Positions 5,855-23,036 of a DNA stretch of 40,435 nucleotides are shown one piece after another. The stretch spans positions 1-40,435 of the forward strand of contig JAPLOW010000211.1 of NCBI GenBank assembly GCA_026400555.1. Reading direction: 5' to 3'. This stretch comes from Hyphomicrobiales bacterium. GTDB taxonomy: Bacteria > Pseudomonadota > Alphaproteobacteria > Rhizobiales > Beijerinckiaceae. Under the pieces are notes generated by a model. The model saw only the letters and a program-made list of their open reading frames with translations. It was not told where the DNA came from and made no database searches. Made by a program: the position numbers and the translations under genes. The stretch's first letter is position 1. Each line of letters starts with the position of its first letter.

Positions 5855-5957
5855 ACCGCGCCCGGCGAGGCGTGGCGCTCCTGAGGCCTGATCCAGGTCA
5901 TGCTTGCTGACCCATCATTCGTCCACTAAGCAGCGGTCATCGCGCTGGAGTTCCGGA

Positions 5958-6731
5958 ATGGCTGCTTTCTTCGAAGAGACCGTCACCCATGTCCATCACT
6001 GGACAGACCGGCTGTTCTCGTTCCGCACCACGCGCGATCCGGCCTTCCGCTTCGAAAACGGTCAGTTCGCCATGATCGGCCTCATGGTTGATGGCCGGCC
6101 GCTGCTGCGCGCCTATTCGATGGCGAGCCCGAACCATGATGATGGCCTCGAGTTCTTCTCGATCAAGGTGCCGGACGGGCCGCTGACCTCACGGCTGCAA
6201 GGCATCAAACCCGGCGACACGATCCTGATCGGGCGCAAGCCCACCGGCACGCTGGTGCAGGACAGCCTGCTGCCGGGCCGCAACCTCTATCTGGTGTCGA
6301 CCGGCACCGGCTTTGCGCCTTTTGCCAGTATCATCCGGGATTTCACGGTCTATGAGCGCTACAACAAGGTCGTGGCCATCCATGGCTGCCGCATCGTGGC
6401 GGAGACCGCCTACAGCCGCCACATCGTCGACGGGCTCCATGCCGACGAGTACATGGCGGAGGTCATGGACGGCAAGCTGGTCTACTATCCGACCGTGACG
6501 CGCGAGGCGTTCGAATATGTCGGGCGCGTCACCACCGGCCTTCGCGATGGCTCGATCCCGGCCAAGGCGGGCCTTGCGCCGCTCGATCCCGCGCTTGACC
6601 GGGTGATGATCTGCGGTTCGGAGGCGATGCTGAAGGACACCGTGACGCTGATGAAGGATCTGGGCTTCGAGGAAGGCTCATCTTCAAGGGCGGGCCACTA
6701 CGTCATCGAAAAGGCCTTCGTCGAGAAGTGA
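5958..6731 (+). CDS. fpr: Ferredoxin/flavodoxin-NADP(+) reductase
   Basis: This FAD enzyme passes electrons between NADPH and ferredoxin or flavodoxin. It has 257 residues, typical of bacterial subclass-I/II FPRs. The FAD-binding motif RAYSMASPN is near residues 52-60, followed by EFFSIKVPDGPLTSRL. The NADP site begins with STGTGFAPFASIIRD, MICGSEAML follows, and the C-terminal tail is YVIEKAFVEK. The ATG at 5958 is chosen because GGAG lies at 5947-5950 and family members begin with this short lead; an upstream in-frame ATG at 5904 adds 18 atypical residues. The stop codon lies inside a 19-base tandem duplication. Reduced ferredoxin or flavodoxin from this enzyme could supply the Fe-S reductase encoded at 19626, but that is only a suggestion. 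Confidence 0.93.
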   Translation: MAAFFEETVTHVHHWTDRLFSFRTTRDPAFRFENGQFAMIGLMVDGRPLLRAYSMASPNHDDGLEFFSIKVPDGPLTSRLQGIKPGDTILIGRKPTGTLVQDSLLPGRNLYLVSTGTGFAPFASIIRDFTVYERYNKVVAIHGCRIVAETAYSRHIVDGLHADEYMAEVMDGKLVYYPTVTREAFEYVGRVTTGLRDGSIPAKAGLAPLDPALDRVMICGSEAMLKDTVTLMKDLGFEEGSSSRAGHYVIEKAFVEK

Positions 6732-6860: not shown

Positions 6861-8059
6861 ATGGTGATGAATACGACACGTCGCTCTGTTGTCGGAGGCC
6901 TCGGCGCCGCCGGGCTGCTGATGCCGTTCTCTGCTGGGGCGCAAACGCCTGCCGCCGGCGCGCCGATCCGCATCGGCGAGATCAACTCCTACAGCCGCAT
7001 GGCGGCATTCGCGCTGCCGTATCGCAATGCCATCCAGATGGCGCAGGACGACATCAATGCAAAGGGCGGCGCGCTTGGCCGGCCACTGGAATTCGTCTTC
7101 CGCGATGATGGCTCGACGCCGGGTGATGCGGTGCGCGTGGCCGAGGAACTGGTAACGCGCGAGAACGTGTCATTCATCGCCGGCACCTTCCTGTCGAATG
7201 TGGGGCTTGCGGTGTCCGACTTCGCCAACCAGCGCAAGATCATGTTCATGGCCACCGAGCCGCTTACGGACGCGCTGACCATGGCGCAGGGCAACCGCTA
7301 CACCTACCGCCTGCGCCCTTCCACCTTCATGCAGACCAAGATGCTGGTCGATGCCGTCAAGGCGCGCGGCATCAAGCGCTGGGGCATCGTTGCGCCGAAC
7401 TATGAGTATGGCCAGTCAGCCGCCGCCAATTTCAAGCGGCTGATGGCGGAGGCGACCCCCGGCTTCGAAGTGGTGGCCGAACAGTTCCCGGCGCTGGGCC
7501 GCATCGATGCCGGCGCGACCGTCGGCGCCCTGGCGCAGGCGCGTCCCGATGGCATCTTCAATGTCACCTTCGGCGCCGACCTGACCCAGTTCGTGCGCGA
7601 AGGCAACACGCGCGGCCTGTTCGAGCGCCGCACCGTGGTCAGCCTCCTGACAGGCGAGCCTGAATATCTGATCCCGCTGGGCGAGGAGACGCCCGAGGGC
7701 TGGATCATCACCGGCTATCCATGGGAACAGATCACAGATCCGGCCCATGTGGCCTTCGTGACCGGCTACCGTGCGAAGTTCAACGATACCCCGCGGCTGG
7801 GCTCGTTCCTGGGTTATGTCTTTGCCTACATGTGCCGGGACCTGATCGCCAAGGCCGGCTCGGTCGACACCGAGGCGCTGCTCAAGACCTTCGCGGCCCG
7901 GTGACGATGCGCGGCATCGACAAGCAGGCGACGATGGGGGCCTGGGTCGGCGAGACCACGCTGAAGGGCAAGGTTGGGGCCATGAAGAACTGGCGTTTCG
8001 CCGATGGCGCCAACTACATGTTCAGCGAGGCCGAGGTCCGCGCGGCGCGCAAAGGGTGA
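6861..8059 (+). pseudogene. Liv/urea-type ABC substrate-binding protein, frameshifted near its C-terminus
   Basis: This is the periplasmic receptor for the importer encoded just downstream. The ATG at 6861 has GGGGAGA eight bases before it. The protein opens with a Tat-like signal (NTTRRSVVGGLGAAGLL, cut near SAGAQ), then the type-I periplasmic fold of amide/branched-chain amino acid receptors (PIRIGEINSYSRMAAF, MAQDDINAKGGALGRPLEFV). The frame stops at 7904 after LLKTFAAR. The rest of the family ending continues at once in another frame (GPVTMRGIDKQATMGAW to WRFADGANYMFSEAEVRAARKG, stop 8059). Relatives have about ten more residues between KTF and GPVT, so the lesion looks like a small deletion not divisible by three near 7893-7905, not a homopolymer error. 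The product would lack its last roughly 60 residues and may not fold. Confidence 0.75.
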
Positions 8060-8080
8060 AGCTTGCATCCCAAATGCGGC

Positions 8081-8177
8081 GTCATCCCGGCCTTGAGCCG
8101 GGATCAGATGACGTGCCGCAAGGCAATCCGGCAGGCACATGCGCTCGCCGAGCGATCCCGGCTCAAGGCCGGGATAA
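8081..8177. repeat. Long inverted repeat between the receptor gene and the permease gene
   Basis: GTCATCCCGGCCTTGAGCCG begins one arm (8081-8105) and its near-perfect inverse, starting GATCCCGGCTCAAGGCCGGG, forms the other (8154-8177), about 48 bases apart. Each arm also carries an internal CCGGC...GCCGG symmetry. The same CCGG-CTTGAGC core recurs at 32008-32089. It is a dispersed intergenic palindromic repeat that could form a large hairpin and separate receptor from permease expression. Confidence 0.75.
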
Positions 8178-8201
8178 CCCGGGGTTTTGGTTGAACGCGT
8201 G

Positions 8202-10088
8202 ATGGATCCCGCTTTCATCGTCATCCAGTCCTTGTCCGGGCTTGCCAGCGCATCGTCGCTGTTCATCATCGCGTCCGGACTGACGATCGTGTTCGGCGTC
8301 ACACGGATCGTGAACTTCGCCCATGGCTCTCTGTACATGCTGGGCGCCTATCTGGCCGTCACCATCGTGCCGATGCTGCTCGAGGTCGATCGCTCGCTGC
8401 CGATGTTCCTGCTCGGCGTCCTGCTGTCGGCCCTGATCGTGGGCGTGATCGGCGCGGCCATGGAGATCATCCTTTTGCGCCGCATCTACCATGTGCCGGA
8501 GCTGTTCCAGCTTCTGGCGACCTTCGGCGTCGTGCTGATCGTGCAGGATCTGGTGATCAAGCTGTGGGGGGCGGTCGAAATTCCGGGGCCGCGTGCGCCC
8601 TCTCTCCGCCACGGCGTCTTCATCTTTGACCAGCGCTTCCCCGCCTATGAGCTTTTCCTGATCGGTGTGGGGCTGGTCGTGCTTGGCCTGCTCTGGCTGC
8701 TCATGCAGAAGACCCGCTTCGGCGTGCTCATCCGCGCCGCGACGCAGGACCGCGACATGGTCGCAGCTCTTGGCGTCAACCAGGCCTGGTTGTTCACGGG
8801 CACGCTGTTCCTCGGCGCGTTTCTGGCCGGGCTGGGCGGGGCGCTTCAAATCCCGCGCGTTGCGGTCAACACGCAGATGGACATCTCGATCATCACCGAG
8901 GTGTTCGTCGTCACTGTGATCGGCGGTATGGGCTCGGTGCCCGGCGCCTTCGTGGCGGCACTGATCATCGGGCAGTTGCAGGCCTTCGGTATCCTGATCT
9001 TCCCGAAGATCACGCTGGTGCTGGTGTTCCTGCTGATGGCGGTGGTGCTGGTCATCAAGCCCTGGGGCCTGTTCGGCAAACCTGACGCCGCGGCGGGGCG
9101 GGCCGTCCTGCCCGAAGGCCTCTTGTCGCTGAGGCGTTTCGGCACGGTCGACAATGTTGTAGCGGGCGTTGCGATCATTGTCATGCTGGCGCTGCCGGTG
9201 TTCGGCGACAACTATATGGTGAAGGTCGGTATCGAGGTGCTGGTGCTGGCGCTGGCTGCCTTCTCGTTGCATTTCCTGATCGGGGTGGGGGGCATCGTCT
9301 CGTTCGGTCATGCGGCCTATTTCGGCATCGGCGCCTATGCTGCGGGGCTGCTGGTGACCAGGCTGGGCTTTGCGATGGAGCCGGCGCTGATCCTCGCTCC
9401 GGTGATCGCGGGCGCTTTCGCAGCCCTGTTCGGTTTTTTCATCGTGCGGCTTTCGGGTATCTACCTCGCCATGCTGACGCTGGCCTTTGCGCAGATTGTC
9501 TACGCGGTCTGCTTCCAGTGGGTCGGCCTCACCGGCGGCGACAACGGCGTTGTCGGCGTCTGGCCGTCGAGCTGGGCAGCGAGCCGGCAGGTCTATTTCT
9601 ATCTTGCGCTTGCGTTCACGCTAAGCGCCATCATCGCGCTGCGGCACGCCATCTACGCGCCGTTCGGTTACGCCCTGCGCGCGGCGCGAGACAGCGCTAC
9701 GCGGGCAGATGCGATCGGCATCGATGTGCGCCGCATCCGCTGGTTCGCCTTCACGCTCTCGGGCGCAGCGGCGGGCCTTGCGGGCGGGCTCTATTCCTTC
9801 TCGAAAGGCTCGATCGATCCAACCATGATCTCGATCCCGATGTCGGTGGACCTGCTGGTGATGGTGCTGCTCGGCGGCATCCAGACGGTGATCGGCCCGC
9901 TGGTGGGGGCGGCTGCGTTTCACTCGATCAAGGACTTCTTCATGCCGCTGACGGACTTCTGGCGGATGTTCCTCGGAGCCTCGATCATCGTCATGGTGCT
10001 TGTCTTCCCGCGCGGGATCGCCGGGGCCGCATCGCTGCTGACCGAGCGTTTCAGGCCGGCGCCCAAGCCTGTCGGCACGCCTGCATGA
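8202..10088 (+). CDS. Fused LivH-LivM branched-chain-type ABC permease
   Basis: This inner-membrane channel of a Liv/urea-type importer joins both permeases in one 628-residue chain. Residues 1-295 are the LivH half: ASGLTIVFGVTRIVNFAHGSLYMLGAY is typical, and the EAA-like cytoplasmic loop is GVLIRAATQDRDMVAALGVN. A linker near KPWGLFGKPDAA leads to the LivM half, with GVGGIVSFGHAAYFGIGAYAAG, GIYLAMLTLAFAQIVYAV and the loop GYALRAARDSATRADAIGID. Many hydrophobic helices span both halves. The ATG at 8202 is preferred over the TTG at 8187. The stop overlaps the next start (ATGA). H-M fusions are known in alphaproteobacteria, so this is probably natural. The substrate cannot be read from the permease; the neighbouring heterocycle cluster makes an N-heterocyclic acid or amide possible. 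Confidence 0.9.
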   Translation: MDPAFIVIQSLSGLASASSLFIIASGLTIVFGVTRIVNFAHGSLYMLGAYLAVTIVPMLLEVDRSLPMFLLGVLLSALIVGVIGAAMEIILLRRIYHVPELFQLLATFGVVLIVQDLVIKLWGAVEIPGPRAPSLRHGVFIFDQRFPAYELFLIGVGLVVLGLLWLLMQKTRFGVLIRAATQDRDMVAALGVNQAWLFTGTLFLGAFLAGLGGALQIPRVAVNTQMDISIITEVFVVTVIGGMGSVPGAFVAALIIGQLQAFGILIFPKITLVLVFLLMAVVLVIKPWGLFGKPDAAAGRAVLPEGLLSLRRFGTVDNVVAGVAIIVMLALPVFGDNYMVKVGIEVLVLALAAFSLHFLIGVGGIVSFGHAAYFGIGAYAAGLLVTRLGFAMEPALILAPVIAGAFAALFGFFIVRLSGIYLAMLTLAFAQIVYAVCFQWVGLTGGDNGVVGVWPSSWAASRQVYFYLALAFTLSAIIALRHAIYAPFGYALRAARDSATRADAIGIDVRRIRWFAFTLSGAAAGLAGGLYSFSKGSIDPTMISIPMSVDLLVMVLLGGIQTVIGPLVGAAAFHSIKDFFMPLTDFWRMFLGASIIVMVLVFPRGIAGAASLLTERFRPAPKPVGTPA

Positions 10089-10864
10089 CGCTGCTCAAGG
10101 TCACCGGGCTCAATAAGCGCTTCGGCGGCGTGGTTGCCGCGAAGGATGTTGCCTTCGCGCTGGAGGCCGGCGACATACTGGCCATCATCGGGCCGAACGG
10201 GGCGGGCAAATCGACCACGTTCAACATGGTCAGCGGGCAGCTTCGGCCTGATTCTGGCGAGGTGCTGCTGGATGGGCAGCCGATCTCGGGCCTCGCTCCG
10301 CGCGAGGTCTGGCGGCGTGGCATCGGCCGCACCTTCCAGATTGCGCAGACCTTCGTCTCGATGAGTGTGGCCGAGAACGTGCAGATGGGGCTGATCTCCT
10401 GGCACGACCGTATCGTGACCTTCGGCGCACGGGCCGAGACGCTCTATCGGCCCGAGGCGCTGCGCCTGCTCGATCTCGTCGGCATGCGCGCGGACGCCGA
10501 CCGCCCGGTGCGTGAGCTGGCCTATGGCGACGTCAAGCGCGTGGAGCTGGCGATCGCGCTCGCTTCCGCGCCAAAGCTCTTGCTGATGGACGAGCCGACC
10601 GCCGGCATGGCGCCGAAGGAGAGGGCGCAACTGATGGACATCACCGCGACCATCGCGCGGCAGCGCAAGATCGGCGTGCTGTTCACCGAGCATGACATGG
10701 ACGCGGTCTTCGCCCATTCCGACCGTATCCTGGTGCTGGTGCGCGGCGAGATCATCGCCGACGGCAAGCCCGACGAGGTCCGTGCCAACGCCCGCGTCAA
10801 GCAGGTGTACCTCGGCGAAATGGGCGTGGCGGCGGCCATGCGGGCACGGCGGGGGCGGGTGTGA
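10085..10864 (+). CDS. livG: Liv-type ABC importer ATPase (LivG)
   Basis: This 259-residue cytoplasmic ATPase powers the LivHM channel. Walker A GPNGAGKST is at 36-44, Walker B LLLMDEPTAGM at about 163-173, and the switch His is in FTEHDMDAVF. The signature is the LivG-like variant ELAYGDVKR. The subfamily segment GIGRTFQIAQTFVSMSVAENV lies after the Q-loop. The ATG at 10085 overlaps the permease stop by four bases, so translation is coupled. A much longer ORF in the same frame extends upstream through the permease gene and is not real coding. The last residues (MRARRGRV) are slightly longer than usual. It pairs with LivF across a 136-base repeat-containing gap. Confidence 0.93.
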   Translation: MTLLKVTGLNKRFGGVVAAKDVAFALEAGDILAIIGPNGAGKSTTFNMVSGQLRPDSGEVLLDGQPISGLAPREVWRRGIGRTFQIAQTFVSMSVAENVQMGLISWHDRIVTFGARAETLYRPEALRLLDLVGMRADADRPVRELAYGDVKRVELAIALASAPKLLLMDEPTAGMAPKERAQLMDITATIARQRKIGVLFTEHDMDAVFAHSDRILVLVRGEIIADGKPDEVRANARVKQVYLGEMGVAAAMRARRGRV

Positions 10865-10880
10865 TGGCTGCCCGTCTGAG

Positions 10881-10974
10881 CCCCACCATTCTCATCCTGA
10901 GCCCGTCATCGGATGATTCCAGCGTGACGCAGCCTGACCTATCCTCCTTCGACAAGCTCAGGATGAGGATGGGG
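10881..10974. repeat. Inverted repeat of the CATCCTGAGC family
   Basis: CCATTCTCATCCTGAGC ends the left arm at 10902 and GCTCAGGATGAGGATGG begins the right arm at 10956; the arms span roughly 10881-10902 and 10956-10974. A related element lies at 19513-19608 and a partial one at the right edge. It fills most of the livG-livF gap and probably arose by insertion into the operon. Confidence 0.75.
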
Positions 10975-11000
10975 GATGAACGAAGCAGGCGTGTTCCACG

Positions 11001-11714
11001 ATGACCGAAGCCCTCCTCAGTGTCCGCAGCCTCAGTGCCGCCTATGGCATGGCGGAGGTGCTGTTCGGCGTCTCGCTTGATGCGCGGCGGGGCGAGGTGG
11101 TGGCGCTCATGGGCCGCAATGGCGCCGGCAAGACCACGACGCTGAAGGCGATCATTGGCATGGTTGAGGCGAGCGCAGAGGCCTTGACCTTCGCCGGCCA
11201 TGACATCCGCAGGCTGCCATCCTATCGCATCGCCCGGCTCGGCCTCGGCTATGTGCCAGAGGAACGCCGCATCTTCACGGACCTCACCGTGCAGGAGAAC
11301 CTCGAAGTCGGCCGCCGCCCGGCGCGTGATGGCCGCGAGGCGTGGACGCTGGAGCGGCTCTACGCGATCTTCCCCAACCTTGCCGAGATGGAAGGCCGCC
11401 GCGCCTCGGCCATGTCCGGCGGCGAGCAGCAGATGCTGACCATCGCCCGTACACTGATGGGCAACCCCGACATGGTACTGCTGGACGAGCCCTCCGAGGG
11501 GCTGGCCCCGGTCATCGTCGAGCAGATGGCCGAAGCCGTGATCGCCATGAAGGCAACCGGCATTGCCGTGCTGCTGTGCGAACAGAACCTGCACTTCGCG
11601 GCGGCTGTCTCCGACCGCGCCTATGTGATCGAAAAAGGCGCGATCCGCTTTTCGGGCACCATGGCGGAGCTTGAGGCGACTGACGCAGTCAGGGAAGCGT
11701 ATCTGACGGTGTGA
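11001..11714 (+). CDS. livF: Liv-type ABC importer ATPase (LivF)
   Basis: This second ATPase of the Liv-type importer has 237 residues, the standard LivF length. Walker A GRNGAGKTT is at 38-46. The LivF-specific GLGYVPEERRIFTDLTVQENL follows, then signature AMSGGEQQML, Walker B MVLLDEPSEGLAP and the switch region LLCEQNLHFA. The C-terminal region around EATDAVREAYLTV matches the family ending. It follows livG in the same direction, separated by a palindromic repeat, and closes the transporter block. With the receptor gene damaged, the importer may depend on a receptor encoded elsewhere. Confidence 0.93.
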   Translation: MTEALLSVRSLSAAYGMAEVLFGVSLDARRGEVVALMGRNGAGKTTTLKAIIGMVEASAEALTFAGHDIRRLPSYRIARLGLGYVPEERRIFTDLTVQENLEVGRRPARDGREAWTLERLYAIFPNLAEMEGRRASAMSGGEQQMLTIARTLMGNPDMVLLDEPSEGLAPVIVEQMAEAVIAMKATGIAVLLCEQNLHFAAAVSDRAYVIEKGAIRFSGTMAELEATDAVREAYLTV

Positions 11715-11719
11715 TCAGA

Positions 11720-12111
11720 TTAGAAGAAGCGGGCATCAGCGCCAACCAGAAGGTCGCGCAACGTCGATGCGACCGGAAAGCCATATCGAGGCCCTTCATC
11801 GGTCCACATCAGTTGGCTCTTTTCGTGACAGTCGCACGCAGACAAGGTGCTCCCAATGGCGTTCAGCGCCAGAACGAGCTCTGCGCGCTACCGATACCAA
11901 AATTCGCCAGTCGCTCGACATGTCCGGCCTGTTCAATGTCATGGGTGCAACTGAAGTCGATGTTCAACGCGACCGGAGCAAAGATGCGTATCTCGCGTGA
12001 ATGCTGAGCAGCGCCCGTGTCAATTGTCAGGTTTCTTGTCGCAACGATCATGAATGAGAGAAGTGCCCAGCATGCCCGAAACGTCACCACCACCTTGCCC
12101 CCCAAACTCAT
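11720..12111 (-). pseudogene. Broken small secreted protein of unknown family
   Basis: The 437-base gap between livF and hyuA is visibly less GC-rich than its surroundings and shows two consecutive minus-strand frames that look like one protein. The first starts at the ATG at 12111 with a basic, hydrophobic signal-like stretch (GGKVVVTFRACWALLSFMIV) and runs through IRIFAPVALNIDFSCTHDIE to a stop at 11863. A second frame then gives IGSTLSACDCHEKSQLMW, TDEGPRYGFPVASTLRDLL and a stop at 11720. A frameshift near 11880 would join them into a product of roughly 110-130 residues. I do not recognise the family. Alternatives are two unrelated tiny ORFs or non-coding DNA. It is divergent from hyuA, whose promoter must lie nearby. 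Confidence 0.3.
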
Positions 12112-12151: not shown

Positions 12152-14203
12152 TTGCGCCGTGTGGCTGGCATTGATGTGGGGGGCACGTTCACCGACCTCC
12201 TGCTTTATGAAGCAGCGGCCGGCGAGGGCGGAACCGTCAAGCTGGCGAAAATCCCGACCACGGCGGACAATCAGGCGCATGGCGTGATCGCCGCCATTGA
12301 GGCGACCGGGGTTTTGCCTGCTGATCTTGACTTGATCATCCACGGCACCACGGCCACCACAAATGCCGTGCTGGAACGCAAGCTGGCGCGCGTTGGCCTG
12401 ATCACCACCATGGGTTTCCGTGACACGCTCGAGCTTGGCCGCCGCACGCGGCCGAAACCCTATGGCCTGTTCGGCACCTTCGAGCCACTGATCCCGCGCG
12501 AGCTGCGCATCGAAATCCCCGAGCGGATGGATGCGCGCGGGCAGGTGGTCACAGCGCTTGATGAAGGCGCCGTGCGGGAGGCCGCGCAAAAGCTGATCGC
12601 CGATGGCTGCGAGGCGCTGGTGATTCATTTCCTGCACGCCTATGCGAACCCTGCCCACGAACTCAGGGCAGGCGAGATCGCCCGCGAGGTCTGGCCCAAT
12701 GGCTACATCACGCTCGGCCATGCGCTGCTCTCCGAGTATCGCGAGTATGAGCGCGGCACCACGGCCAGCGTCAATGCCGCCGTGCAGCCGATCCTCGACC
12801 GCTATATCCGCCGCCTGCAGGGCGAGTTGGAGGCGCGCGGATTCAAGCGCGATCTCTTGGTCATGAACGGCAATGGCGGCACGGTGTCCGCCCGTCTTGT
12901 GGCGCGCGATGCCGCCAAGACAGTGATGAGCGGCCCGGCATCGGGCGTGATGGCTGCTGCTGCGACGCTTGGGCAATCGGGCCTCGCCAATGCCATAACC
13001 TATGACATGGGCGGCACGTCGACCGATGTGGCGCTTATCCATGGCGGCGTGCCCGAGGTGTCGGCGGAACTCACCATCGCCTATGGCCTGCCGATCCATG
13101 TGCCGATGGTCGATGTGCGTACGGTTGGCGCGGGCGGCGGCTCCATCGCAGCTCTGAATGCCGCCGGCATGCTGACCGTCGGCCCGCATTCGGCAGGCTC
13201 GGAGCCCGGCCCGATCTGCTACGGGCGCGGCGGCACCGACGTCACCATCACCGATGCCAATCTCGTGCTTGGCCGCCTTGATCCGGGCAAGCTGTTGGCC
13301 GTGAAGAACCCCGTTGCAATCGAGCATGTGCGCGCCATTGTGGATGCGAAGCTGGCCAGGCCGCTTGGGCTCAGCATCGAAGCGGCAGCTTCTGCCGTGC
13401 TGACGCTTGGCAACATGCACATGGCAGGCGCGATCCGCATGGTCTCGCTGTCGCGCGGGCATGATCCCCGCGATTTCGCTTTGTTCGCCTTCGGTGGGGC
13501 AGGGCCGTTGCACGCCGTCGCGTTGGCGCGGGAGCTTGCTCTGGCTGAAGTGCTGGTGCCGGCCCGGCCGGGACTGACCAATGCGCTGGGCTGCCTCGTC
13601 GCGGACCTGCGCCAGGATTTCGTGCAGACGCTGAACATCGGGCTTGATCTGGCCGACATGGGCCATGTCGCAACGGTGCTGGCGGCTCAGAGGGCGCAGG
13701 GGCTGGCGATCAACGCCGATGAGCAGGACGAGATCGTCGAAACCGTGGTGCTGCACGGGGCCGACATGCAGTTTCGAGGGCAGACGCATCTGATCCGCGT
13801 GGCGTTGCCTGCCGGCGAGGTCAGCCGCGAGGCTTTGCAGACGCTGTTCGAGGCTGCTTACTTTAGGCGCTTTCAGGTCACGTTGCCGGAAATCCGCGCG
13901 GTGCTGGTCAATCTCATCACCTCGGTGATCGGCAAGCGCCGGGCGCTGCCGCTGGCGAGCCTGATTGATCCAGATGGGCGCAAGTCCACCGCTGACGAAG
14001 CGGTGGTCGGCCTGCGGCCGCTCTTTGCCGATGGCGTTTGGCATGATGTTAAGGTCTATCAGCGCGAGATGCTCCCTATCGGCGCTCTGTTGGCGGGTCC
14101 TGCAGTCGTGCAGCAGATCGACGCCACCACGATCATCGAGCCGGGCTGGCGCGCGCGTGTGGATGAGATCGGCAATCTGCGCATTGTGGCGGGTCTGGCA
14201 TGA
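12152..14203 (+). CDS. hyuA: HyuA-type ATP-dependent hydantoinase/oxoprolinase, subunit A
   Basis: This 683-residue protein is the ATP-binding subunit of the N-methylhydantoinase/5-oxoprolinase family, which opens cyclic amides with ATP hydrolysis through a phosphorylated lactam. The phosphate-binding motif GIDVGGTFTD is at residues 6-15. HGTTATTNAVLER, VMSGPASGVMAAA, YDMGGTSTDVALI, TVGAGGGSIA and FGGAGPLHAVALA complete the actin-like fold. The start is TTG at 12152, with AAGGGG eight bases upstream; ATG starts do not fit the N-terminus. Its stop overlaps the hyuB ATG (ATGA), the first of three consecutive overlaps. In this cluster its likely job is opening a lactam ring made by the Mo hydroxylase and the Fe-S reductase; the substrate is inferred, not shown. 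Confidence 0.9.
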   Translation: MRRVAGIDVGGTFTDLLLYEAAAGEGGTVKLAKIPTTADNQAHGVIAAIEATGVLPADLDLIIHGTTATTNAVLERKLARVGLITTMGFRDTLELGRRTRPKPYGLFGTFEPLIPRELRIEIPERMDARGQVVTALDEGAVREAAQKLIADGCEALVIHFLHAYANPAHELRAGEIAREVWPNGYITLGHALLSEYREYERGTTASVNAAVQPILDRYIRRLQGELEARGFKRDLLVMNGNGGTVSARLVARDAAKTVMSGPASGVMAAAATLGQSGLANAITYDMGGTSTDVALIHGGVPEVSAELTIAYGLPIHVPMVDVRTVGAGGGSIAALNAAGMLTVGPHSAGSEPGPICYGRGGTDVTITDANLVLGRLDPGKLLAVKNPVAIEHVRAIVDAKLARPLGLSIEAAASAVLTLGNMHMAGAIRMVSLSRGHDPRDFALFAFGGAGPLHAVALARELALAEVLVPARPGLTNALGCLVADLRQDFVQTLNIGLDLADMGHVATVLAAQRAQGLAINADEQDEIVETVVLHGADMQFRGQTHLIRVALPAGEVSREALQTLFEAAYFRRFQVTLPEIRAVLVNLITSVIGKRRALPLASLIDPDGRKSTADEAVVGLRPLFADGVWHDVKVYQREMLPIGALLAGPAVVQQIDATTIIEPGWRARVDEIGNLRIVAGLA

Positions 14204-15891
14204 CCGAAAAACCCGATGCCCTCACCATGGCAGTCATTCAGGCGGGCCTGACGCAGGTCTGCAACGAGATGGACATCGCTTTTACCCGCTCGGCCTTCTC
14301 GCCCGTGATCGCTGAGGCCGATGACCGCTCTTCCGGCATCTACGCGATCGAGGACGGCGCACTGATCGCACAGGGCGAGTTCGGCCTGCCGGTGTTCGTC
14401 GGCACGATGCAGCATTCGACCGCCGCCATCACCCGGCTGATCCGCGAAGGACGGGTGGCTCCGCCCGAGCCCGATGACATCTACATTGTCAACGACCCCT
14501 ATCTCGGCGGCACGCACCTCATGGATGTGCGCTTCGCGATGCCGTTCCATGTCGATGGCGAACTGTTCTGCTGGCTGCAGAATACGGGTCACTGGCCTGA
14601 CATCGGCGGCATGGTGCCAGGAGGCTTCTCGGCCAAGGCCACCGAAGTCGAGCAGGAGGGCCTGCGCCTGCCGCCCGTCAAACTGTTCAAGCGCGGAGTG
14701 ATGGATCAGGAGATCTATTCGATCATCACGTCCAACATCCGTGTGGCTGACCAGCGCATCGGAGATATCAAGGCGCAGGCGTCGGCGCTGAAGGTCGGCG
14801 CGAACAGGCTGGCCGAACTGGTCGCGCGCTATGGCGTGGCCACGCTCAAGGCCGCCATCTCAGACATGCGCGTCCGGGCTGCGGAACTGATGCGGGCCCA
14901 CATCGCGGGAATTCCGGATGGCGTCTACAGGTCCGAGGCGTTCGTCGACTCCGATGGCGTGGTTAATGAGCCGCTCAGGATCGTCTTGAAGATCACGGCC
15001 CAAGGCACTGAACTTGGATTCGATTTTACCGGCTCGTCGCCGCCGTGCCGGGGCCCGATGAACTCGGTCGTGGCGACGACCTATTCCGCCGTCTATCTGG
15101 CTGTCCGTCACATTTTTCCCGATACGCCGCTGAATGCGGGGGCGTTCGAGCCGCTCAAGATCGTCAGGCCGGAAGGCACGTTCCTGGACGCGCGCTATCC
15201 TCGTCCGGTCTCCGGCTGTGCGGCCGAGGTTTCGCAGCGCATTGCCGAAGCGGTGTTCCTGGCGCTGGCCAAGGCGATCCCTGAAAAGGTGACGGCGGCG
15301 CCGGCGGGTTCTTCCGGCAACTTTGCGCTTGGCGGCTTCGATCCGGCCAAGGGCGCGGCCTATGTGATGTACCAGATCTCCGGCGGGGGCTACGGCGGCA
15401 ACATCGAGCATGACGGATTGAGCAATGGCTGCTCGACCATCGGGATTTCCAAGACCGCGCCTGTCGAGGTGATGGAGCAGTACTACCCGATCTTGTTCCG
15501 GCGCTTTGCCCTGCGCGAAGGCTCGGGTGGGGCGGGTCAGCATCGCGGCGGCTTCGGCGTGCACTACGAGGTGGAGTTGCTGCGCGGGGAGGCACGGGCC
15601 TCGTTCGTGATGGATCATGGCCGGTTCGGCCCGCCCGGCGTGCAAGGCGGGCAGGACGGTGCGCCAAATATTGTGCGCATCCATCGTGGCGGGGAGGTGT
15701 TCACGCCCGAGCATCTGTCGAAGGATCAGGATGTGCCGCTGAAGGCCGGTGACCGCGTCGAGGTGATGACGCCGGGCGGCGGGGGCTATGGCCCGGCCTC
15801 GGCGCGTGACCCGGCGCTGGTGGCGCGTGATGTCCTGCGGGGGTATTTCACGGCGGATGAGGCGGCCCGCTTGTTTGGGGAGCATGCATGA
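14200..15891 (+). CDS. hyuB: HyuB-type hydantoinase/oxoprolinase, subunit B
   Basis: This 563-residue partner of HyuA carries the hydrolytic part of the ATP-dependent cyclic-amide hydrolase. Family hallmarks are the N-terminal NEMDIAFTRSAFSPVIAEADD, YIVNDPYLGGTHLMD, LQNTGHWPDIGGMVPGGFSA (a variant of the GHHADIGG segment), FDFTGSSPPCRGPMN, and the C-terminal GSGGAGQHRGGFGVHYE and TPGGGGYGPASARDP. It overlaps hyuA and the next gene by four bases on each side, so the two subunits and the Mo-enzyme genes are probably made from one message. Length and motifs appear complete. Known relatives act on hydantoins, 5-oxoproline or caprolactam; here a six-membered oxo-pyridine lactam is a plausible substrate. 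Confidence 0.92.
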   Translation: MTEKPDALTMAVIQAGLTQVCNEMDIAFTRSAFSPVIAEADDRSSGIYAIEDGALIAQGEFGLPVFVGTMQHSTAAITRLIREGRVAPPEPDDIYIVNDPYLGGTHLMDVRFAMPFHVDGELFCWLQNTGHWPDIGGMVPGGFSAKATEVEQEGLRLPPVKLFKRGVMDQEIYSIITSNIRVADQRIGDIKAQASALKVGANRLAELVARYGVATLKAAISDMRVRAAELMRAHIAGIPDGVYRSEAFVDSDGVVNEPLRIVLKITAQGTELGFDFTGSSPPCRGPMNSVVATTYSAVYLAVRHIFPDTPLNAGAFEPLKIVRPEGTFLDARYPRPVSGCAAEVSQRIAEAVFLALAKAIPEKVTAAPAGSSGNFALGGFDPAKGAAYVMYQISGGGYGGNIEHDGLSNGCSTIGISKTAPVEVMEQYYPILFRRFALREGSGGAGQHRGGFGVHYEVELLRGEARASFVMDHGRFGPPGVQGGQDGAPNIVRIHRGGEVFTPEHLSKDQDVPLKAGDRVEVMTPGGGGYGPASARDPALVARDVLRGYFTADEAARLFGEHA

Positions 15892-16747
15892 TCGGTTATC
15901 TTCGCCCTGCTACGCTCACTGACGCGCTCGCAATCCGCGCCCGACACGACGTTCAGGTTTTGGCGGGCGGCACGGATGTCTATCCAGCCTTCGCAACGCG
16001 GCGCGCCTGGGGCGATCCTGCTCATAAGGACGTGCTCGACATGTCCGCTATCAGCGTATTGCGCGGGATCAGCGAGCATGCCGACCACTGGCGGTTCGGG
16101 GCGCTGACGACCTGGACCGATCTGATCCGTGCAGACCTGCCGCCGCTGTTCGATGGCTACCGCATGGCGGCGCGCGAGGTCGGCGGCGTGCAGATCCAGA
16201 ACCGCGGCACGCTGGTGGGGAATATCTGCACCGCATCGCCTGCCGGGGACGGCATTCCCTGCCTGCTGACGCTGGATGCCGAGGTGGAACTCAGCTCTCA
16301 GCGCGGGGTGCGGCTTATTCCCATCTCGGATTTCATCACGGGCTATCGCGCGACGGCGGTGGAAGCAGACGAAATCGTGACCGCGCTGCTGGTGCCGAAG
16401 TCGCCGGGTCAGGGACGGTTCCTGAAGCTCGGCGCGCGCAGGTATCTGGTGATCTCGATCGTCATGGTTGCGGCGGTGATCGAAGCCGACAAGGGCGTGA
16501 TTACGGCTGCGCGTCTGGCTGTCGGATCGTGCTCGGCGGTGGCGCAACGCTTGACCGTTCTTGAGGCTGCCTTGCAGGGACAGAGGCTTGCCGATTCGGC
16601 TGGCATCGTCGCGGTGGACCATCTCGCCGGGCTTCGGCCCATCAACGACGTACGCAGTACGGGTGCATACCGTCAGGACGCGGCGCTGACGCTGGTTCGC
16701 GATGTGCTGGCCGGCTTTGCGGGCGGTGCCGTCCGGAGCGTTGCCTG

Positions 16748-16748
<1 letters not shown>
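15888..16748 (+). CDS. Molybdenum hydroxylase FAD-binding subunit (CoxM/XdhB type)
   Basis: This 286-residue flavoprotein passes electrons from the Fe-S centres of a xanthine-dehydrogenase-family hydroxylase to its acceptor. The FAD pyrophosphate motif VLAGGTDVYPAF is at about 23-34. The second FAD motif appears as QNRGTLVGNICTASPAGDGIP, which matches the usual N(R/V)GTxxGN...PAxD pattern. KLGARRYLVISIV is the family's conserved mid-C-terminal segment, and the CO-dehydrogenase flavoprotein C-terminal domain follows. It starts inside hyuB (ATGA) and its stop overlaps the start of the Mo subunit (TGATG). Together they form a two-gene hydroxylase that uses water to add oxygen next to a ring nitrogen. 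Confidence 0.92.
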
Positions 16749-19501
<2,753 letters not shown>

Positions 19502-19512
19502 TGGTACGAAAT

Positions 19513-19608
19513 CCCCCGATCCTCATCCTGAACTCGTTGAAGGATCAGTTCCCGGTGGTGCGTCGCTGGAACTGCTTCTTCGACAGGCTCAGGATCAGGA
19601 TGGTGGGT
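19513..19608. repeat. Inverted repeat of the CATCCTGAGC family
   Basis: CCCCCGATCCTCATCCTGAA (from about 19513) and GGCTCAGGATCAGGATGGTG (from about 19587) form imperfect inverted arms. The element fills almost the whole 124-base gap between the Mo subunit and the reductase gene. It is closely related to the element at 10881-10974 and splits the cluster into two tightly overlapping blocks. Confidence 0.7.
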
Positions 19609-19625
19609 GTCCCGAGTTCACTTGC

Positions 19626-21122
19626 ATGATCGACAGCCTCTCCACCGCCGCGCGCTCCGCAAAATTCGGCGCTGCCGAGGGCGACGGCATTGTGCGTTGT
19701 GATGCGTGCCCGGTCCTATGCCGCATCAGGCCGGGGCGGGCAGGGGCATGCTCGCGCTATGCAAATGTCGAGGGTCAATTGGTGCGGACAGACCCGGTGC
19801 TCTTGATGCAGCGGACCATGGATGGCGGCGGCAAGCTGGTCGAGTTTGCCGGCACGGACTGGGATGGCCAGCCGCTCGATGCGTCACGCACCTTCATCAC
19901 CGGCGTCGGTTCCGGCACAACCTATCCCGACTACAAGCCCGCGCCTTTCATCGTCTCGTCGCAGCACGAGGGCGTCGACACGGTCACCGTCGTGACGGAG
20001 GGCATTTTCTCCTATTGCGGCGTCAAGGTGAAGATCGACACCGACCGGCATCTCGGGCCTGAAGCCGCGCCGGTCATGGTCGGCGGCGAGCAGGTCGGCC
20101 ATGTGACCACGGCAGAATATGGCTCGCAGATGCTCTCGATCGGTGGCGTACGCCATCTCACCGGCGGCTCGAAGAAAGAGGGTAATGTCACCTGCGAGAC
20201 TTTGCTGAAACTCTGCTCCGGCGAACCGGTCGAGATGACCATTCCTGGCGGCCACAGTGTAATCGTACAGGCGAACGCCGCTCCGATTGTCGCCGGCAAG
20301 CCGGAGGAGCGCATGCGCGTCGGCTGCGGGTCGGCCACCATTGGCATCTTTGCCAAGCAATGGCTCGGCCATGTCGACGAGGTGATCGTGGTCGATGACC
20401 ACATCACGGGCGTCCTGACAGAACATCAGGCCGGGCGCGTGCTCGACATGCGGCCCGGCGGCATCCGCGTGCGCGGCCGCAAATCGACGCCGGGGCGCTA
20501 TTTTCAGGTCGCCAATCCGGGGCTTGGCTGGGGCGGCACCGACATCTCCAATCCGCTCGCGATCATCCAGAAGATCGACCCGGCTGTGGCCTGGCCGGGC
20601 ATGCGGCTTCTGCTGACATCAACGACCGGTGAGGACGCTCTCTATTGCATTCTCGATGAGAACCTTGTTCCGGTGCCTGCCGAGATGCCAGCGGCGGTTC
20701 GGCTGGTTGTCGACCGCATTGGCGAGAATTGCGAGCCGTCGCTGTGCTCGGTGCTGTTCATGGCGGGCGCGGGCGGGAGTCTGAGGGCCGGCGTCAGCGA
20801 GAATCCGGTGCTGCTGACCCGTTCGGTGGCGAAGGGCGAGACGCGGGTGACGTTGGGCGGAGCGCCCGCCTACATCTGGGCCGGAGGTGGCATCACGGTG
20901 ATGGCGGATGTGACGCGCATGCCGAAGGGCTCGTTCGGCTATGTGCCCACACCAGCCATTGTCGCGCCGATCGAATTCACGCTGCCGCGCGCGCTTTATG
21001 AACAGATCGGGGGGCATGCGTCCGATATCGTGTCGATGGACGATCTGCTTGTCGCACTGTCGCAGGAGGCGCGCGTCGAGCGCTGGTTCGACTCCAATCC
21101 CTGGCCAAAGGGCGTCGGCTGA
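19626..21122 (+). CDS. hnr: 6-hydroxynicotinate reductase-like Fe-S protein
   Basis: This 498-residue protein resembles the family named after the ferredoxin-dependent 6-hydroxynicotinate reductase of Eubacterium barkeri, which reduces the ring to 1,4,5,6-tetrahydro-6-oxonicotinate. The N-terminus carries a compact cysteine cluster, RCDACPVLCRIRPGRAGACS (C-x2-C-x3-C-x9-C, residues about 25-43), suited to a 4Fe-4S centre. Conserved-looking blocks are TGVGSGTTYPDYKPAPFI, GIFSYCGVKVKIDTDRHLG, GGVRHLTGGSKKEGNVTCET, MRVGCGSATIGIFAKQW and GLGWGGTDISNPL. It sits just downstream of a Mo hydroxylase that could make the 6-hydroxy substrate. Its stop overlaps the MarR start (TGATG). The name comes from my recognition of the family and was not searched; the exact substrate may differ. 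Confidence 0.75.
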   Translation: MIDSLSTAARSAKFGAAEGDGIVRCDACPVLCRIRPGRAGACSRYANVEGQLVRTDPVLLMQRTMDGGGKLVEFAGTDWDGQPLDASRTFITGVGSGTTYPDYKPAPFIVSSQHEGVDTVTVVTEGIFSYCGVKVKIDTDRHLGPEAAPVMVGGEQVGHVTTAEYGSQMLSIGGVRHLTGGSKKEGNVTCETLLKLCSGEPVEMTIPGGHSVIVQANAAPIVAGKPEERMRVGCGSATIGIFAKQWLGHVDEVIVVDDHITGVLTEHQAGRVLDMRPGGIRVRGRKSTPGRYFQVANPGLGWGGTDISNPLAIIQKIDPAVAWPGMRLLLTSTTGEDALYCILDENLVPVPAEMPAAVRLVVDRIGENCEPSLCSVLFMAGAGGSLRAGVSENPVLLTRSVAKGETRVTLGGAPAYIWAGGGITVMADVTRMPKGSFGYVPTPAIVAPIEFTLPRALYEQIGGHASDIVSMDDLLVALSQEARVERWFDSNPWPKGVG

Positions 21123-21583
21123 TGGCGCGGCCCGCCGAAAGCGCGGCGAACGGCGCCCGGCCTGTGCCGGAACCCTATGTGCTTGAGGCGCAGATCGGCT
21201 TTCTGCTGCGCAAGGCGCAGCAGCGGGCGACCGAACATTTCAATGCGGTGATGGAGGAGTTCGGGGTGACTCCGACCCAGTTCGCGGCGCTCGCCAAGCT
21301 GCACGAGCTTGGGCCGACCTCCCAGAACCTGCTGGGGCGGCTGACGGCCATGGACCCTGCGACGATCTTCAGCGTGGTCGGCCGCCTCGTCAGGCGCGGG
21401 TGGGTGGCGCAGGTTGCCGATCCACATGACGCGCGGCTGGTCAATGTCAGCCTGACGACGGACGGCGAACTGGCCGCGCGGAAAATGATTCACCTCGCTC
21501 CGAACGTGTCGCATAAGACGCTTGCGCCCTTGACGGCGAGCGAGGCAAAGCTGTTGCTTGGCTTGATCGGGAAACTTGGCTGA
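21122..21583 (+). CDS. MarR-family transcriptional regulator
   Basis: This 153-residue winged-helix protein is of MarR type. The helical lead IGFLLRKAQQRATEHFNAVME is followed by FGVTPTQFAALAKLHELGPTSQNLLGRLTAMDPATIFSVVGRL as the helix-turn-helix, then the wing with RRGWVAQVADPHDARLVNVSLTTDGE. The PHDAR segment is the usual wing motif. It overlaps the reductase stop by one base and its own stop overlaps the next gene, so it is embedded in the second block and probably controls the cluster in response to a pathway compound, as MarR proteins commonly do. I found no clear matching palindrome upstream of hyuA. Confidence 0.92.
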   Translation: MARPAESAANGARPVPEPYVLEAQIGFLLRKAQQRATEHFNAVMEEFGVTPTQFAALAKLHELGPTSQNLLGRLTAMDPATIFSVVGRLVRRGWVAQVADPHDARLVNVSLTTDGELAARKMIHLAPNVSHKTLAPLTASEAKLLLGLIGKLG

Positions 21584-22458
21584 TGGCGATGGTCCAGCGA
21601 CCGCTGGTGCAGGAACTGGTCGGCGGGCAGGTGCACATGCAGCACGGTCCGATCGATCTGGTGCTGCGCGCCTGGGGGGGCGAGAGCGAGGTCGAGGCGG
21701 CCTACCGCGCCGCCGCCATCCGCTTCCAGACCATTCTGGATGAACTCGTCTCAGAATTGCCGGAGCTGCGCACGCCGATGACGGCGCGGCCTGACGTATC
21801 GCTGCCGACCGCGCGGCGGATGTGCGCGGCCTGTGCACCGTTCGAGGGATTTTTCATCACGCCCATGGCGGCCGTGGCGGGCGCGGTCGCCGACGAAATG
21901 CTGGCGGCGATGCTGGGGGCGGCCCGGCTGCGCCGCGCTTTTGTCAATGACGGCGGCGATGTCGCCGTCCATATGAGCCCGGGAGAGAGCCTAACGGTGG
22001 GCGTGGTCGGCGATTTTTCGCGCTCCACCATTCCGGTCGAGAGCGCAGAGCTGTTCCTCAACGCAGAGATGCCGGTGCGCGGCATCGCCACGTCCGGCGC
22101 GCAGGGCCGGTCCTTCTCGCTTGGAATTGCCGACTCGGTGACGGTCCTGGCCGGAACCGCGGCAGCAGCGGATGCGGCGGCAAGCCTTGTCGCGAATGCC
22201 GTCAATCTCGACCACCCGCGCGTGGTGCGCCGGCCCGCGCGTGACCTCGATCCCGACAGCGATCTCGGCGACCGCCTTGTGACGGTGCTGGTTCCGCCGC
22301 TATCCGCTGCGGAGATCGACCTTGCGCTCGACAAGGGCGTGGCGCTCGCGCGCAGCTTCCGCGATCGCGGTCTGATCGTGGATGCGGCCCTCACGCTTCA
22401 GGGCCGGACGACGACCCTCGACACTTATCTCCAGACCCGTGCAGGAACCGCAAAATGA
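21583..22458 (+). CDS. UPF0280 family protein (ApbE-like fold)
   Basis: This 291-residue protein belongs to UPF0280, a family placed in the ApbE-like (FAD:protein FMN transferase) structural superfamily but of unknown function. Conserved-looking parts are the N-terminal QHGPIDLVLRAWGGESEVEAAYRAA, FITPMAAVAGAVADEMLAAM and RRAFVNDGGDVAVHMSPGE, the last recalling the N-x-G-G-D motif of ApbE enzymes. It overlaps MarR (TGATG) and DUF1185 (ATGA), so all three are translationally coupled to the reductase. It could modify or load a flavin cofactor for the reductive step, or bind a related phosphate compound; neither is shown by the sequence. Confidence 0.85.
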   Translation: MAMVQRPLVQELVGGQVHMQHGPIDLVLRAWGGESEVEAAYRAAAIRFQTILDELVSELPELRTPMTARPDVSLPTARRMCAACAPFEGFFITPMAAVAGAVADEMLAAMLGAARLRRAFVNDGGDVAVHMSPGESLTVGVVGDFSRSTIPVESAELFLNAEMPVRGIATSGAQGRSFSLGIADSVTVLAGTAAAADAAASLVANAVNLDHPRVVRRPARDLDPDSDLGDRLVTVLVPPLSAAEIDLALDKGVALARSFRDRGLIVDAALTLQGRTTTLDTYLQTRAGTAK

Positions 22459-23036
22459 CCATCAGGCTGCGCAAGCTCGTCACCTGTGTCGAAGACATCC
22501 GCCATGATTGCGGGCCGGACCTCGCTACGCCGGTGCGCAAGGGCTGGGTCGCGGCCGTGATCCAGAATCCGTTCGCCGGACGCTATGAGCCGGACTTGCA
22601 ATGGTTCATGGATGAGCTCAAGCCACTCGGGCTCGAATGCTCGACGCGGCTTTGCGCCGCCATAGGCATCAAGCCGGCGGAGGTCGAGGCCTATGGCAAG
22701 GGCTCGATCGTGGGCGTGAACGGCGAAGTGGAGCACGGCGCGCTCTGGCATGTTCCCGGTGGCTACGCGATGCGTGAACTGATCGGTCAGGCGCTGGCCA
22801 TCGTGCCGTCCGCCGCCAAGGTCGCGGCGATGGGGACGGGGATCGACCTGCCGATCCATCACAAGGATGCGGCCTATGTGCGCTCGCATTTCGATGCGAT
22901 CACCTGCGTGGTGCCGGATGCGCCACGGCCCGACGAGATCCTGTTCGCGCTGTGCATGTCGACCGGCGGCCGGCCCCACGCGCGCATGGGCGGCCTGGCC
23001 GCGAGCGCGATCAGCAAGTGGGATGGCCAGCGATAA
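22455..23036 (+). CDS. DUF1185 'amino acid synthesis' family protein
   Basis: This 193-residue protein belongs to the DUF1185 family, annotated as 'amino acid synthesis' without a proven reaction. It opens with IRKLVTCVEDIRHDCGPDLA, followed by KGWVAAVIQNPFAGRYEPDL and GKGSIVGVNGEVEHGALWHV. It has no signal peptide or membrane span, so it is cytoplasmic. It overlaps UPF0280 by four bases and ends the second block of the cluster; the next gene is separated by about 110 bases. Members of this family commonly sit near amide or N-heterocycle genes, so a role in handling a ring-opening product is possible. Confidence 0.85.
   Translation: MTIRLRKLVTCVEDIRHDCGPDLATPVRKGWVAAVIQNPFAGRYEPDLQWFMDELKPLGLECSTRLCAAIGIKPAEVEAYGKGSIVGVNGEVEHGALWHVPGGYAMRELIGQALAIVPSAAKVAAMGTGIDLPIHHKDAAYVRSHFDAITCVVPDAPRPDEILFALCMSTGGRPHARMGGLAASAISKWDGQR

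What the first reader, a model, noticed from the sequence alone, without database searches (positions are those of the whole stretch)
12152..23036. Candidate oxidise-reduce-hydrolyse N-heterocycle (nicotinate-type) degradation cluster
Two overlapping-gene blocks join a HyuA/HyuB cyclic-amide hydrolase, a complete Mo hydroxylase, a 6-hydroxynicotinate-reductase-like Fe-S protein, a MarR regulator and two proteins of unknown function (UPF0280, DUF1185). Ring hydroxylation next to N, partial ring reduction and lactam opening follow logically. Reductive nicotinate degradation through 6-hydroxynicotinate is known from Eubacterium barkeri and reported physiologically in Azorhizobium, but the classical clostridial gene set (enamidase, 2-hydroxymethylglutarate enzymes) is not seen here. 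The gene set and tight coupling suggest a distinct route in an aerobic alphaproteobacterium.
Basis: partly seen in the sequence, partly recalled or inferred. Interest (0 to 1): 0.85.

Follow-up and report, generated by a model that had tools for sequence, protein, structure and literature searches.

The report
Nicotinate reductive-breakdown cluster with swapped ring-opener
This stretch of bacterial DNA holds a known kind of gene set that probably breaks down vitamin B3 (nicotinate) by first reducing its ring, but with a different, probably ATP-using ring-opening enzyme, and with a constant companion protein that may attach the reductase's cofactor.

Summary
The genes are real and as described. 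They are a variant of the known reductive nicotinate cluster (Mo hydroxylase, 6-hydroxynicotinate reductase Hnr, ring opener) described for Azorhizobium and Bradyrhizobiaceae (PMC3511419). The usual opener, enamidase, was found neither in the window nor in its genome (85% complete); HyuA/HyuB, with the ATP motifs and metal tetrad of caprolactamase, stand in its place. Of 199 distinct Hnr loci, 95 carry enamidase, 33 HyuAB, none both, 71 neither in the DNA held; the label changes at least 5 times on the Hnr tree. NicAB or the window's XDH-type Mo enzyme occurs with either opener, which argues for one shared intermediate (THON). Nicotinate phosphoribosyltransferase lies in the window and 29 other loci. 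The stronger new point is UPF0280: in samples of 289 and 398 genomes it occurs in exactly the 44 and 32 genomes that have Hnr. Its model resembles ApbE flavin transferases but lacks their His-loop motif. E. barkeri Hnr carries covalent flavin (recalled). I propose that UPF0280 flavinylates or otherwise matures Hnr. All chemistry is inferred; nothing was assayed. New variant of a known kind.

The parts
4562..5854 (+). nicotinate phosphoribosyltransferase (NAPRT), beside the cluster
   Evidence: PF04095/PF17767; NF003704 497 bits > 379 and TIGR01514 281 > 269.55; NAPRT in 30 of 199 Hnr loci
5904..6731 (+). ferredoxin-NADP reductase-like, probable electron supply for Hnr
   Evidence: PF00970/PF00175; best NCBIfam PRK10926, 136 bits, below its cut-off of 390; FPR-like gene in 61 of 199 loci
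6861..12007 (+). branched-chain-type ABC transporter (binding protein, permease region, ATPases), putative importer
   Evidence: Pfam Peripla_BP_6, BPD_transp_2, ABC_tran; the last ORF 11711-12007 has no Pfam hit; homologous transporters recur in other loci
12152..14203 (+). HyuA: ATP-binding subunit of the putative ring-opening lactamase
   Evidence: Hydantoinase_A; PDB 7hk5, 6yra; ATP motifs DVGGTFTD, DMGGT, GSEPGP; listed start codon is TTG
14200..15891 (+). HyuB: metal-binding subunit of the putative ring-opening lactamase
   Evidence: Hydantoinase_B; aligned to CapB 6yra_B, D42, H106, D109 and H131 match the CapB tetrad D41, H99, D102, H124 (my counting on the printed alignment)
15888..16748 (+). 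Mo hydroxylase FAD subunit
   Evidence: FAD_binding_5, CO_deh_flav_C
16748..19501 (+). Mo hydroxylase fused [2Fe-2S] plus molybdopterin subunit
   Evidence: Fer2, Fer2_2, MoCoBD_1/2; PDB hits across the XDH family incl. nicotinate dehydrogenase 3hrd, not as best hit
19626..21122 (+). Hnr: 6-hydroxynicotinate reductase-like Fe-S protein
   Evidence: 61.9-77.2% to 26 plasmid relatives, 17 of 20 annotated ones named 6-hydroxynicotinate reductase; C25, C28, C32, C42, C131, C190, C234, C369 each conserved in at least 98% of 196
21122..21583 (+). MarR-family regulator, inside the operon
   Evidence: PF12802/PF01047; MarR recurs in many loci
21583..22458 (+). UPF0280 (COG2122) protein, proposed Hnr maturation factor / flavin transferase
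   Evidence: NF003322 above cut-off; model pLDDT 90.8 matches 2o34, then ApbE/FmnB/Ftp; profile match to ApbE 91.8%
22455..23036 (+). AA_synth / DUF1185 protein, role unknown
   Evidence: PF06684; 3byq E 4e-56; family in 171 of 199 Hnr loci

Best explanation
The window carries a reductive nicotinate catabolism cluster. The ABC transporter imports nicotinate or a near relative; the XDH-type Mo enzyme hydroxylates it beside the ring N to 6-hydroxynicotinate; Hnr, fed with electrons through the ferredoxin-NADP reductase, reduces this to 1,4,5,6-tetrahydro-6-oxonicotinate (THON); HyuA/HyuB then open the lactam with ATP in place of enamidase, giving an enamine that falls apart to 2-formylglutarate and ammonia. 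UPF0280 matures Hnr, most likely by placing its flavin. Shown here: gene content, conservation, the mutual exclusion of HyuAB and enamidase, the strict Hnr-UPF0280 pairing, conserved ATP and metal motifs. Inferred: substrate, every chemical step, and what UPF0280 does.
For: Sister clusters carry enamidase: the Sulfitobacter amidohydrolase has one PDB hit at E<=1e-10, 2vun ENAMIDASE (E 1e-106). Openers in 199 distinct loci: enamidase 95, HyuAB 33, both 0, neither 71. Genome-wide, of 28 HyuAB genomes 14 have no enamidase hit, 11 only weak partial hits (E 1e-3 to 1e-7) and 3 a distant full-length one (41-42%), while 4 of 4 enamidase-type controls have it at 54-75%. Cluster HyuA is 57-100% identical in 11 of 11 HyuAB genomes searched and the other full-length HyuA are at most 47%; 3 of 3 enamidase-type genomes have none above 46%. 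The opener label changes at least 5 times on two Hnr trees. NicAB occurs with HyuAB in 3 loci (L029, L182, L319) and with enamidase in 54; XDH-type Mo with HyuAB in 23 and with enamidase in 37. NAPRT in 30 of 199 loci. ATP motifs in 33, 31 and 32 of 33 HyuA; HyuB motifs in 29 of 29.
Against: The substrate is not proven: the Mo subunit's best PDB hits are aldehyde oxidoreductases, not 3hrd. 71 of 199 loci show neither opener; only 35 of these are shorter than 19 kb, so the other 36 keep it elsewhere or have another solution. HyuB was found in 29 of the 33 HyuAB loci. 12 of 33 HyuAB loci lack a DUF1185 gene while 95 of 95 enamidase loci have one, so the variants differ in more than the opener. 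L063 has an enamidase plus distant HyuA/HyuB paralogues. HyuA and HyuB score below the NCBIfam caprolactamase cut-offs. The Hnr model is poor (pLDDT 63) and gave no fold match at E<=0.001. The named loci are the 80 nearest to an Azorhizobium-type Hnr, so the sample leans towards Bradyrhizobium and enamidase. Changes on a tree cannot tell gain from loss.
Confidence: 0.72

Rival explanations
1. Same reductive logic, other substrate: the XDH-type Mo + HyuAB variant degrades a different pyridine or N-heterocycle carboxylate (for example isonicotinate, picolinate or an N-methylated form), with Hnr a paralogue of shifted specificity.
For: XDH-type Mo enzyme rather than NicAB in the window and in 23 of 26 HyuAB loci with a Mo gene; the Mo subunit cannot be assigned to nicotinate by sequence.
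Against: NAPRT in the window; NicAB + HyuAB in 3 loci and XDH-type + enamidase in 37; the Mo label changes 7 times on the Hnr tree.
Confidence: 0.2
2. UPF0280 serves Fe-S or sulfur (persulfide) chemistry on Hnr rather than flavin transfer, as was suggested for COG2122 with DUF39 in methanogens. This is a rival to the UPF0280 part only.
For: PMC5764234 (passages): COG2122 is needed for homocysteine synthesis with DUF39 and NIL/ferredoxin; [quoted passage not shown] a persulfide role is cited. Hnr has 8 highly conserved Cys. The ApbE His-loop pattern is in 0 of 207 UPF0280 frames.
Against: Fold and profile matches are to flavin transferases, with N[ND]GGD in 205 of 207, TSG in 203 and AD[AVS]x[AVC][ASTV] in 206; E. 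barkeri Hnr has covalent flavin (recalled).
Confidence: 0.3
3. HyuAB is not part of the pathway and only a neighbour; THON is opened elsewhere or spontaneously.
For: 71 of 199 loci have neither opener in the DNA held; in some loci HyuAB lies apart from Hnr or on the other strand.
Against: Mutual exclusion in loci and genomes, overlap with the Mo genes in the window, discrete orthologue group of HyuA.
Confidence: 0.08

Closest known systems
Nicotinate degradation cluster of Azorhizobium caulinodans / Bradyrhizobiaceae (PMC3511419)
   Same: Hnr, Mo hydroxylase, ABC transporter and two unknown proteins; in the Azorhizobium-sized genome (L220) UPF0280 and two DUF1185 genes follow Hnr
   Different: window has HyuAB instead of enamidase, an XDH-type Mo enzyme instead of NicAB, one DUF1185 and an internal MarR
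Eubacterium barkeri nicotinate fermentation (Alhapel 2006, recalled; paper not held)
   Same: Mo nicotinate hydroxylase, Hnr (a Bradyrhizobiaceae relative is 42% identical to it according to PMC3511419), THON logic
   Different: no enamidase; no methyleneglutarate-branch genes among the window ORFs scanned with Pfam; Mo subunits divided differently (3hrd chains)
Caprolactamase CapAB / N-methylhydantoinase (PMC8453981, passages; 6yra, 7hk5)
   Same: two-part ATP-dependent lactam hydrolase with the same ATP motifs and, for CapB, the same metal tetrad
   Different: below the CapA/CapB cut-offs (485 and 300 of 1000 bits); expected substrate is THON
ApbE/FmnB/Ftp flavin transferases and UPF0280 protein DVU1097 (2o34)
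   Same: fold (Foldseek), NGGD-type, TSG and AD-type stretches
   Different: ApbE H-x-[DN]-P loop pattern absent; TM-scores to ApbE-type chains only about 0.3-0.5; no hit to ApbE by simple profile search of the PDB

Membership tests
Reductive nicotinate catabolism cluster (E. barkeri / Azorhizobium type) | 6-hydroxynicotinate reductase homologue | tested here: met
   17 of 20 annotated plasmid relatives bear the name; 65% to Hnr of the Azorhizobium-sized genome. Direct comparison with the E. barkeri protein not run
Reductive nicotinate catabolism cluster (E. barkeri / Azorhizobium type) | Mo-dependent nicotinate hydroxylase | tested here: inconclusive
   complete XDH-family enzyme present; substrate not assignable
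Reductive nicotinate catabolism cluster (E. barkeri / Azorhizobium type) | enamidase | tested here: not met
   no match in G000 (85% complete), which contains the window
Reductive nicotinate catabolism cluster (E. barkeri / Azorhizobium type) | THON as intermediate | not testable with these tools
   needs biochemistry
ATP-dependent HyuAB/CapAB lactamase | three ATP motifs in A, metal tetrad in B | tested here: met
Caprolactamase (NF050156/NF050157) | curated score cut-off | tested here: not met
   485 and 300 bits against 1000
UPF0280 / COG2122 | family model | tested here: met
   NF003322 373 > 290 bits; profile hit to 2o34 E 7e-12. That PRK04334/2o34 is COG2122 is recalled
ApbE flavin transferase | ApbE fold | tested here: met
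   Foldseek probability 0.96-1.00 to ApbE/FmnB/Ftp chains, TM-scores about 0.3-0.5; hhalign 91.8% against 0.1-0.5% in 4 controls
ApbE flavin transferase | His of the H-x-[DN]-P loop (recalled motif) | tested here: not met
   0 of 207 UPF0280 frames, duplicates included; gap at the loop
ApbE flavin transferase | FMN transfer to a client protein | not testable with these tools
   needs assay
DUF1185 (PF06684) | family model | tested here: met
   233 bits > 27

The most novel reading that the evidence does not exclude
UPF0280/COG2122 is an unrecognised, His-loop-less branch of the ApbE superfamily that attaches the flavin of 6-hydroxynicotinate reductase in the cytosol; by the same logic COG2122 in methanogens and Desulfovibrio would mature a redox protein of homocysteine synthesis. 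Together with ATP-driven THON opening by HyuAB this would give two new enzyme functions to one cluster.
Probability: 0.4. Interest if true: 0.75.

Novelty: new variant of a known kind. Interest (0 to 1): 0.58.

Why it matters
If true, it names a second, ATP-using way to open the reduced nicotinate ring, seen here in 33 alphaproteobacterial loci, and it gives the long uncharacterised UPF0280 family a single client protein with which its chemistry can be tested in an easy aerobic host. It also suggests that the Pfam name 'Amino acid synthesis' for DUF1185, which rests on a chorismate-mutase-like fold and on transporter neighbourhoods (PMC2954203, passages), is misleading.

Tried and rejected
Homarine breakdown was my first guess for a related pathway; the listing (2 papers) held nothing relevant and I dropped it. 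I asked whether Hnr resembles DUF39 (PF01837): no member of a 15-row Hnr alignment lists it at E<=1; DUF39 sequences for a profile comparison were not obtained (searched only G000 plus controls). Hnr structure was predicted but is unreliable and gave no fold. No perfect inverted repeat with arms of 6 or more and a gap of up to 8 was seen in six intergenic gaps of the window; imperfect operators would be missed. The idea that DUF1185 is specific to Hnr clusters is rejected: 388 plasmid records have it, for example beside nucleoside hydrolases and an isochorismatase in Sinorhizobium medicae. One plasmid record with UPF0280 but no Hnr hit (Hydrogenophaga BPS33) looked like a counter-example; just upstream, next to IS1071, lies a C-terminal Hnr remnant of about 42 residues (45% to L032 Hnr, E 3e-6; only E 0.01 with the window's own Hnr). 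I looked at 2 of its 4 UPF0280 places. The 'both' Mo labels (6 loci) are an artefact: in 6 of 6 the XDH-type hit overlaps the small FeS subunit of NicAB.

Rows dropped before counts: 3 and 13 short weak hits (E about 3e-4 to 8e-4) were not counted as Hnr; 9 duplicate loci were dropped; the tree left out L034 (short frame); that used 31 of 33 HyuAB loci and 48 enamidase loci drawn at random; one search used 196 Hnr. Not every genome with Hnr was fetched for its neighbourhood: 40 of 43 relatives, 40 of 43 class genomes, 20 from the phylum search and 20 from the family search. Of 10 ApbE loci, 5 gave a usable frame.
Full report
What is there. The cluster reaches further upstream: NAPRT, ferredoxin-NADP reductase and ABC transporter stand in the same order in the close relatives L036 and L038, L038 with the acyl-CoA ligase too. 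The window lies in a 3.79 Mb, 262-contig genome, 85% complete. Two same-genus genomes have Hnr loci that are duplicates of Bosea records (L072=L280, L066=L288), so the genus is probably Bosea in the GTDB sense (for L288 NCBI now says Allobosea).

What it resembles. The Hnr-like protein passes no Pfam or NCBIfam cut-off and has no meaningful PDB hit, but 26 plasmid relatives are 61.9-77.2% identical, and 17 of the 20 annotated ones are called 6-hydroxynicotinate reductase. PMC3511419 (passages) describes an Hnr at 42% identity to E. barkeri in a conserved cluster of A. caulinodans, B. japonicum, R. palustris and strain SG-6C, with the first three steps, a transporter and two proteins of unknown function. 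Genome G760 has a 5,369,772-base contig, the size I recall for A. caulinodans ORS571; its locus L220 holds enamidase, FPR, NicB/FeS, Hnr, UPF0280, two DUF1185 and MarR. So the kind is known.

The variant. The named ones are the best 80 of at least 591 relatives of an Azorhizobium-type query, so the sample leans to Bradyrhizobium. Opener: enamidase 95, HyuAB 33, both 0, neither 71 in the DNA held, of which 35 are shorter than 19 kb. One enamidase locus, L063, also has distant Hyu paralogues. Beyond the loci, of 28 HyuAB-type genomes 14 show no enamidase hit, 11 only weak partial hits, 3 a distant full-length one (41-42%); 4 of 4 controls have it at 54-75%. HyuA orthologues are 57-100% identical to the window's in 11 of 11 HyuAB genomes, the other full-length HyuA at or below 47%; the 3 enamidase-type genomes searched have none above 46%. 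The opener label changes 8 times on a FastTree of 198 Hnr, 5 forced by well supported branches (shuffled mean 29), and 6 times, 5 forced, on an IQ-TREE of 79 (shuffled mean 25). Within the window's genus, 35 loci show HyuAB+XDH 3, enamidase+XDH 11, enamidase+NicAB 7, enamidase without a Mo gene 1, and 13 without an opener. The simplest reading is that HyuAB and enamidase act at the same step.

Can HyuAB open a lactam? PMC8453981 (passages) gives the ATP motifs of CapA and the Asp-His-Asp-His metal tetrad of CapB. The window HyuA has DVGGTFTD, DMGGT and GSEPGP, and HyuB aligns D42, H106, D109 and H131 to the tetrad. Over the clusters the motifs hold in 33, 31 and 32 of 33 HyuA and 29 of 29 HyuB; HyuB was found in 29 of the 33 loci. 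The proteins do not reach the caprolactamase cut-offs, so they are CapAB-like, not caprolactamase.

Why nicotinate. NAPRT stands in 30 of 199 loci, in the window clade and in Bradyrhizobium/Chelatococcus-type loci. NicAB-type genes, named nicotinate dehydrogenase in Neorhizobium, occur with HyuAB in 3 and with enamidase in 54 loci, and the XDH-type Mo enzyme in 23 and 37. FPR-like genes are in 61 of 199 loci, fitting a ferredoxin-dependent Hnr (EC 1.3.7.1, recalled). The Mo enzyme itself cannot be assigned by sequence.

UPF0280. It lies within 700 bases downstream of Hnr on the same strand in 196 of 199 loci; in L296 it is about 8 kb away, and L282 and L310 have it elsewhere in the genome. In a class sample of 289 genomes, Hnr (3 weak fragments dropped) and UPF0280 occur in the same 44; in a phylum sample of 398, in the same 32 (13 weak fragments dropped). 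The two samples share some genomes. On plasmids 27 records have UPF0280: 26 are the Hnr records, and the 27th has an Hnr remnant cut at IS1071. Limit: one query protein, so distant COG2122 would be missed. The model (pLDDT 90.8) matches DVU1097 (2 chains) first and then, among 27 hits at E<=0.001, only ApbE/FmnB/Ftp flavin transferases; probabilities are 0.98-1.00 but TM-scores only about 0.3-0.5. Profile comparison with 5 ApbE gives 91.8% probability, E 7e-7; four controls give 0.1-0.5%. A profile search of the PDB finds 2o34 but no ApbE. N[ND]GGD (205 of 207 frames), TSG (203) and AD[AVS]x[AVC][ASTV] (206) are kept; the ApbE H-x-[DN]-P pattern is in none of the 207. No canonical ApbE was found in the window's genome. 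From memory, Alhapel 2006 reports a covalently bound flavin in E. barkeri Hnr; the paper is not held. [quoted passage not shown] I hold flavinylation as likelier than sulfur chemistry but unproven.

Literature limits. Searches for UPF0280 (none), 6-hydroxynicotinate reductase (2 papers), hydantoinase with nicotinate terms (15 listed; the two holding 'hydantoinase' were looked into by passages and are unrelated) and enamidase/hydantoinase/oxonicotinate (25 of 237 listed) showed no paper on HyuAB in nicotinate breakdown or on UPF0280 with Hnr. Only open-licence papers are held, so this is no proof of novelty.

Noticed in passing
L340 4002-5055 and 14811-15864 (Hydrogenophaga sp. BPS33 plasmid): UPF0280 in repeated units bordered by IS1071 with a C-terminal remnant of Hnr just upstream; beside MarR, Rieske and VanB-type reductase genes.
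   Followed up: partly
L031 16055-17122 and L033 15523-16593 (Roseobacters): Rieske oxygenase (VanA_C domain in the L031 one) next to Hnr clusters; could be an N-demethylase feeding N-methylnicotinate (trigonelline) in. Guess only.
   Followed up: partly
L033 1-2794 (Sagittula stellata): fumarylacetoacetate hydrolase family, PrpB and PrpF genes near HyuB, across a transposase fragment; resembles E. barkeri lower-pathway families (recalled).
   Followed up: no
window 22455-23036; L342 9986-10570: DUF1185 'Amino acid synthesis' family sits in 171 of 199 Hnr loci and elsewhere beside nucleoside hydrolases and an isochorismatase; the family name looks misleading.
   Followed up: partly
window 2951-4456: malonyl-CoA synthase-type ligase (NF005702, 864 bits > 558) next to NAPRT, also in L038.
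   Followed up: no
window 23083-25357, minus strand: amidase (NF004815, 554 > 506 bits) overlapping a 295-aa protein without a Pfam or NCBIfam hit.
   Followed up: partly
G128 C1:2969781-2971255; G863 C1:1857197-1859210: Hnr (G128) and HyuA (G863) match in two adjoining pieces, as if frame-shifted.
   Followed up: no
L287, L289, L290, L292, L295, L298, L303: Hnr loci in metagenome bins named as Acidobacteria-type organisms, so the cluster seems to reach beyond Pseudomonadota.
   Followed up: no
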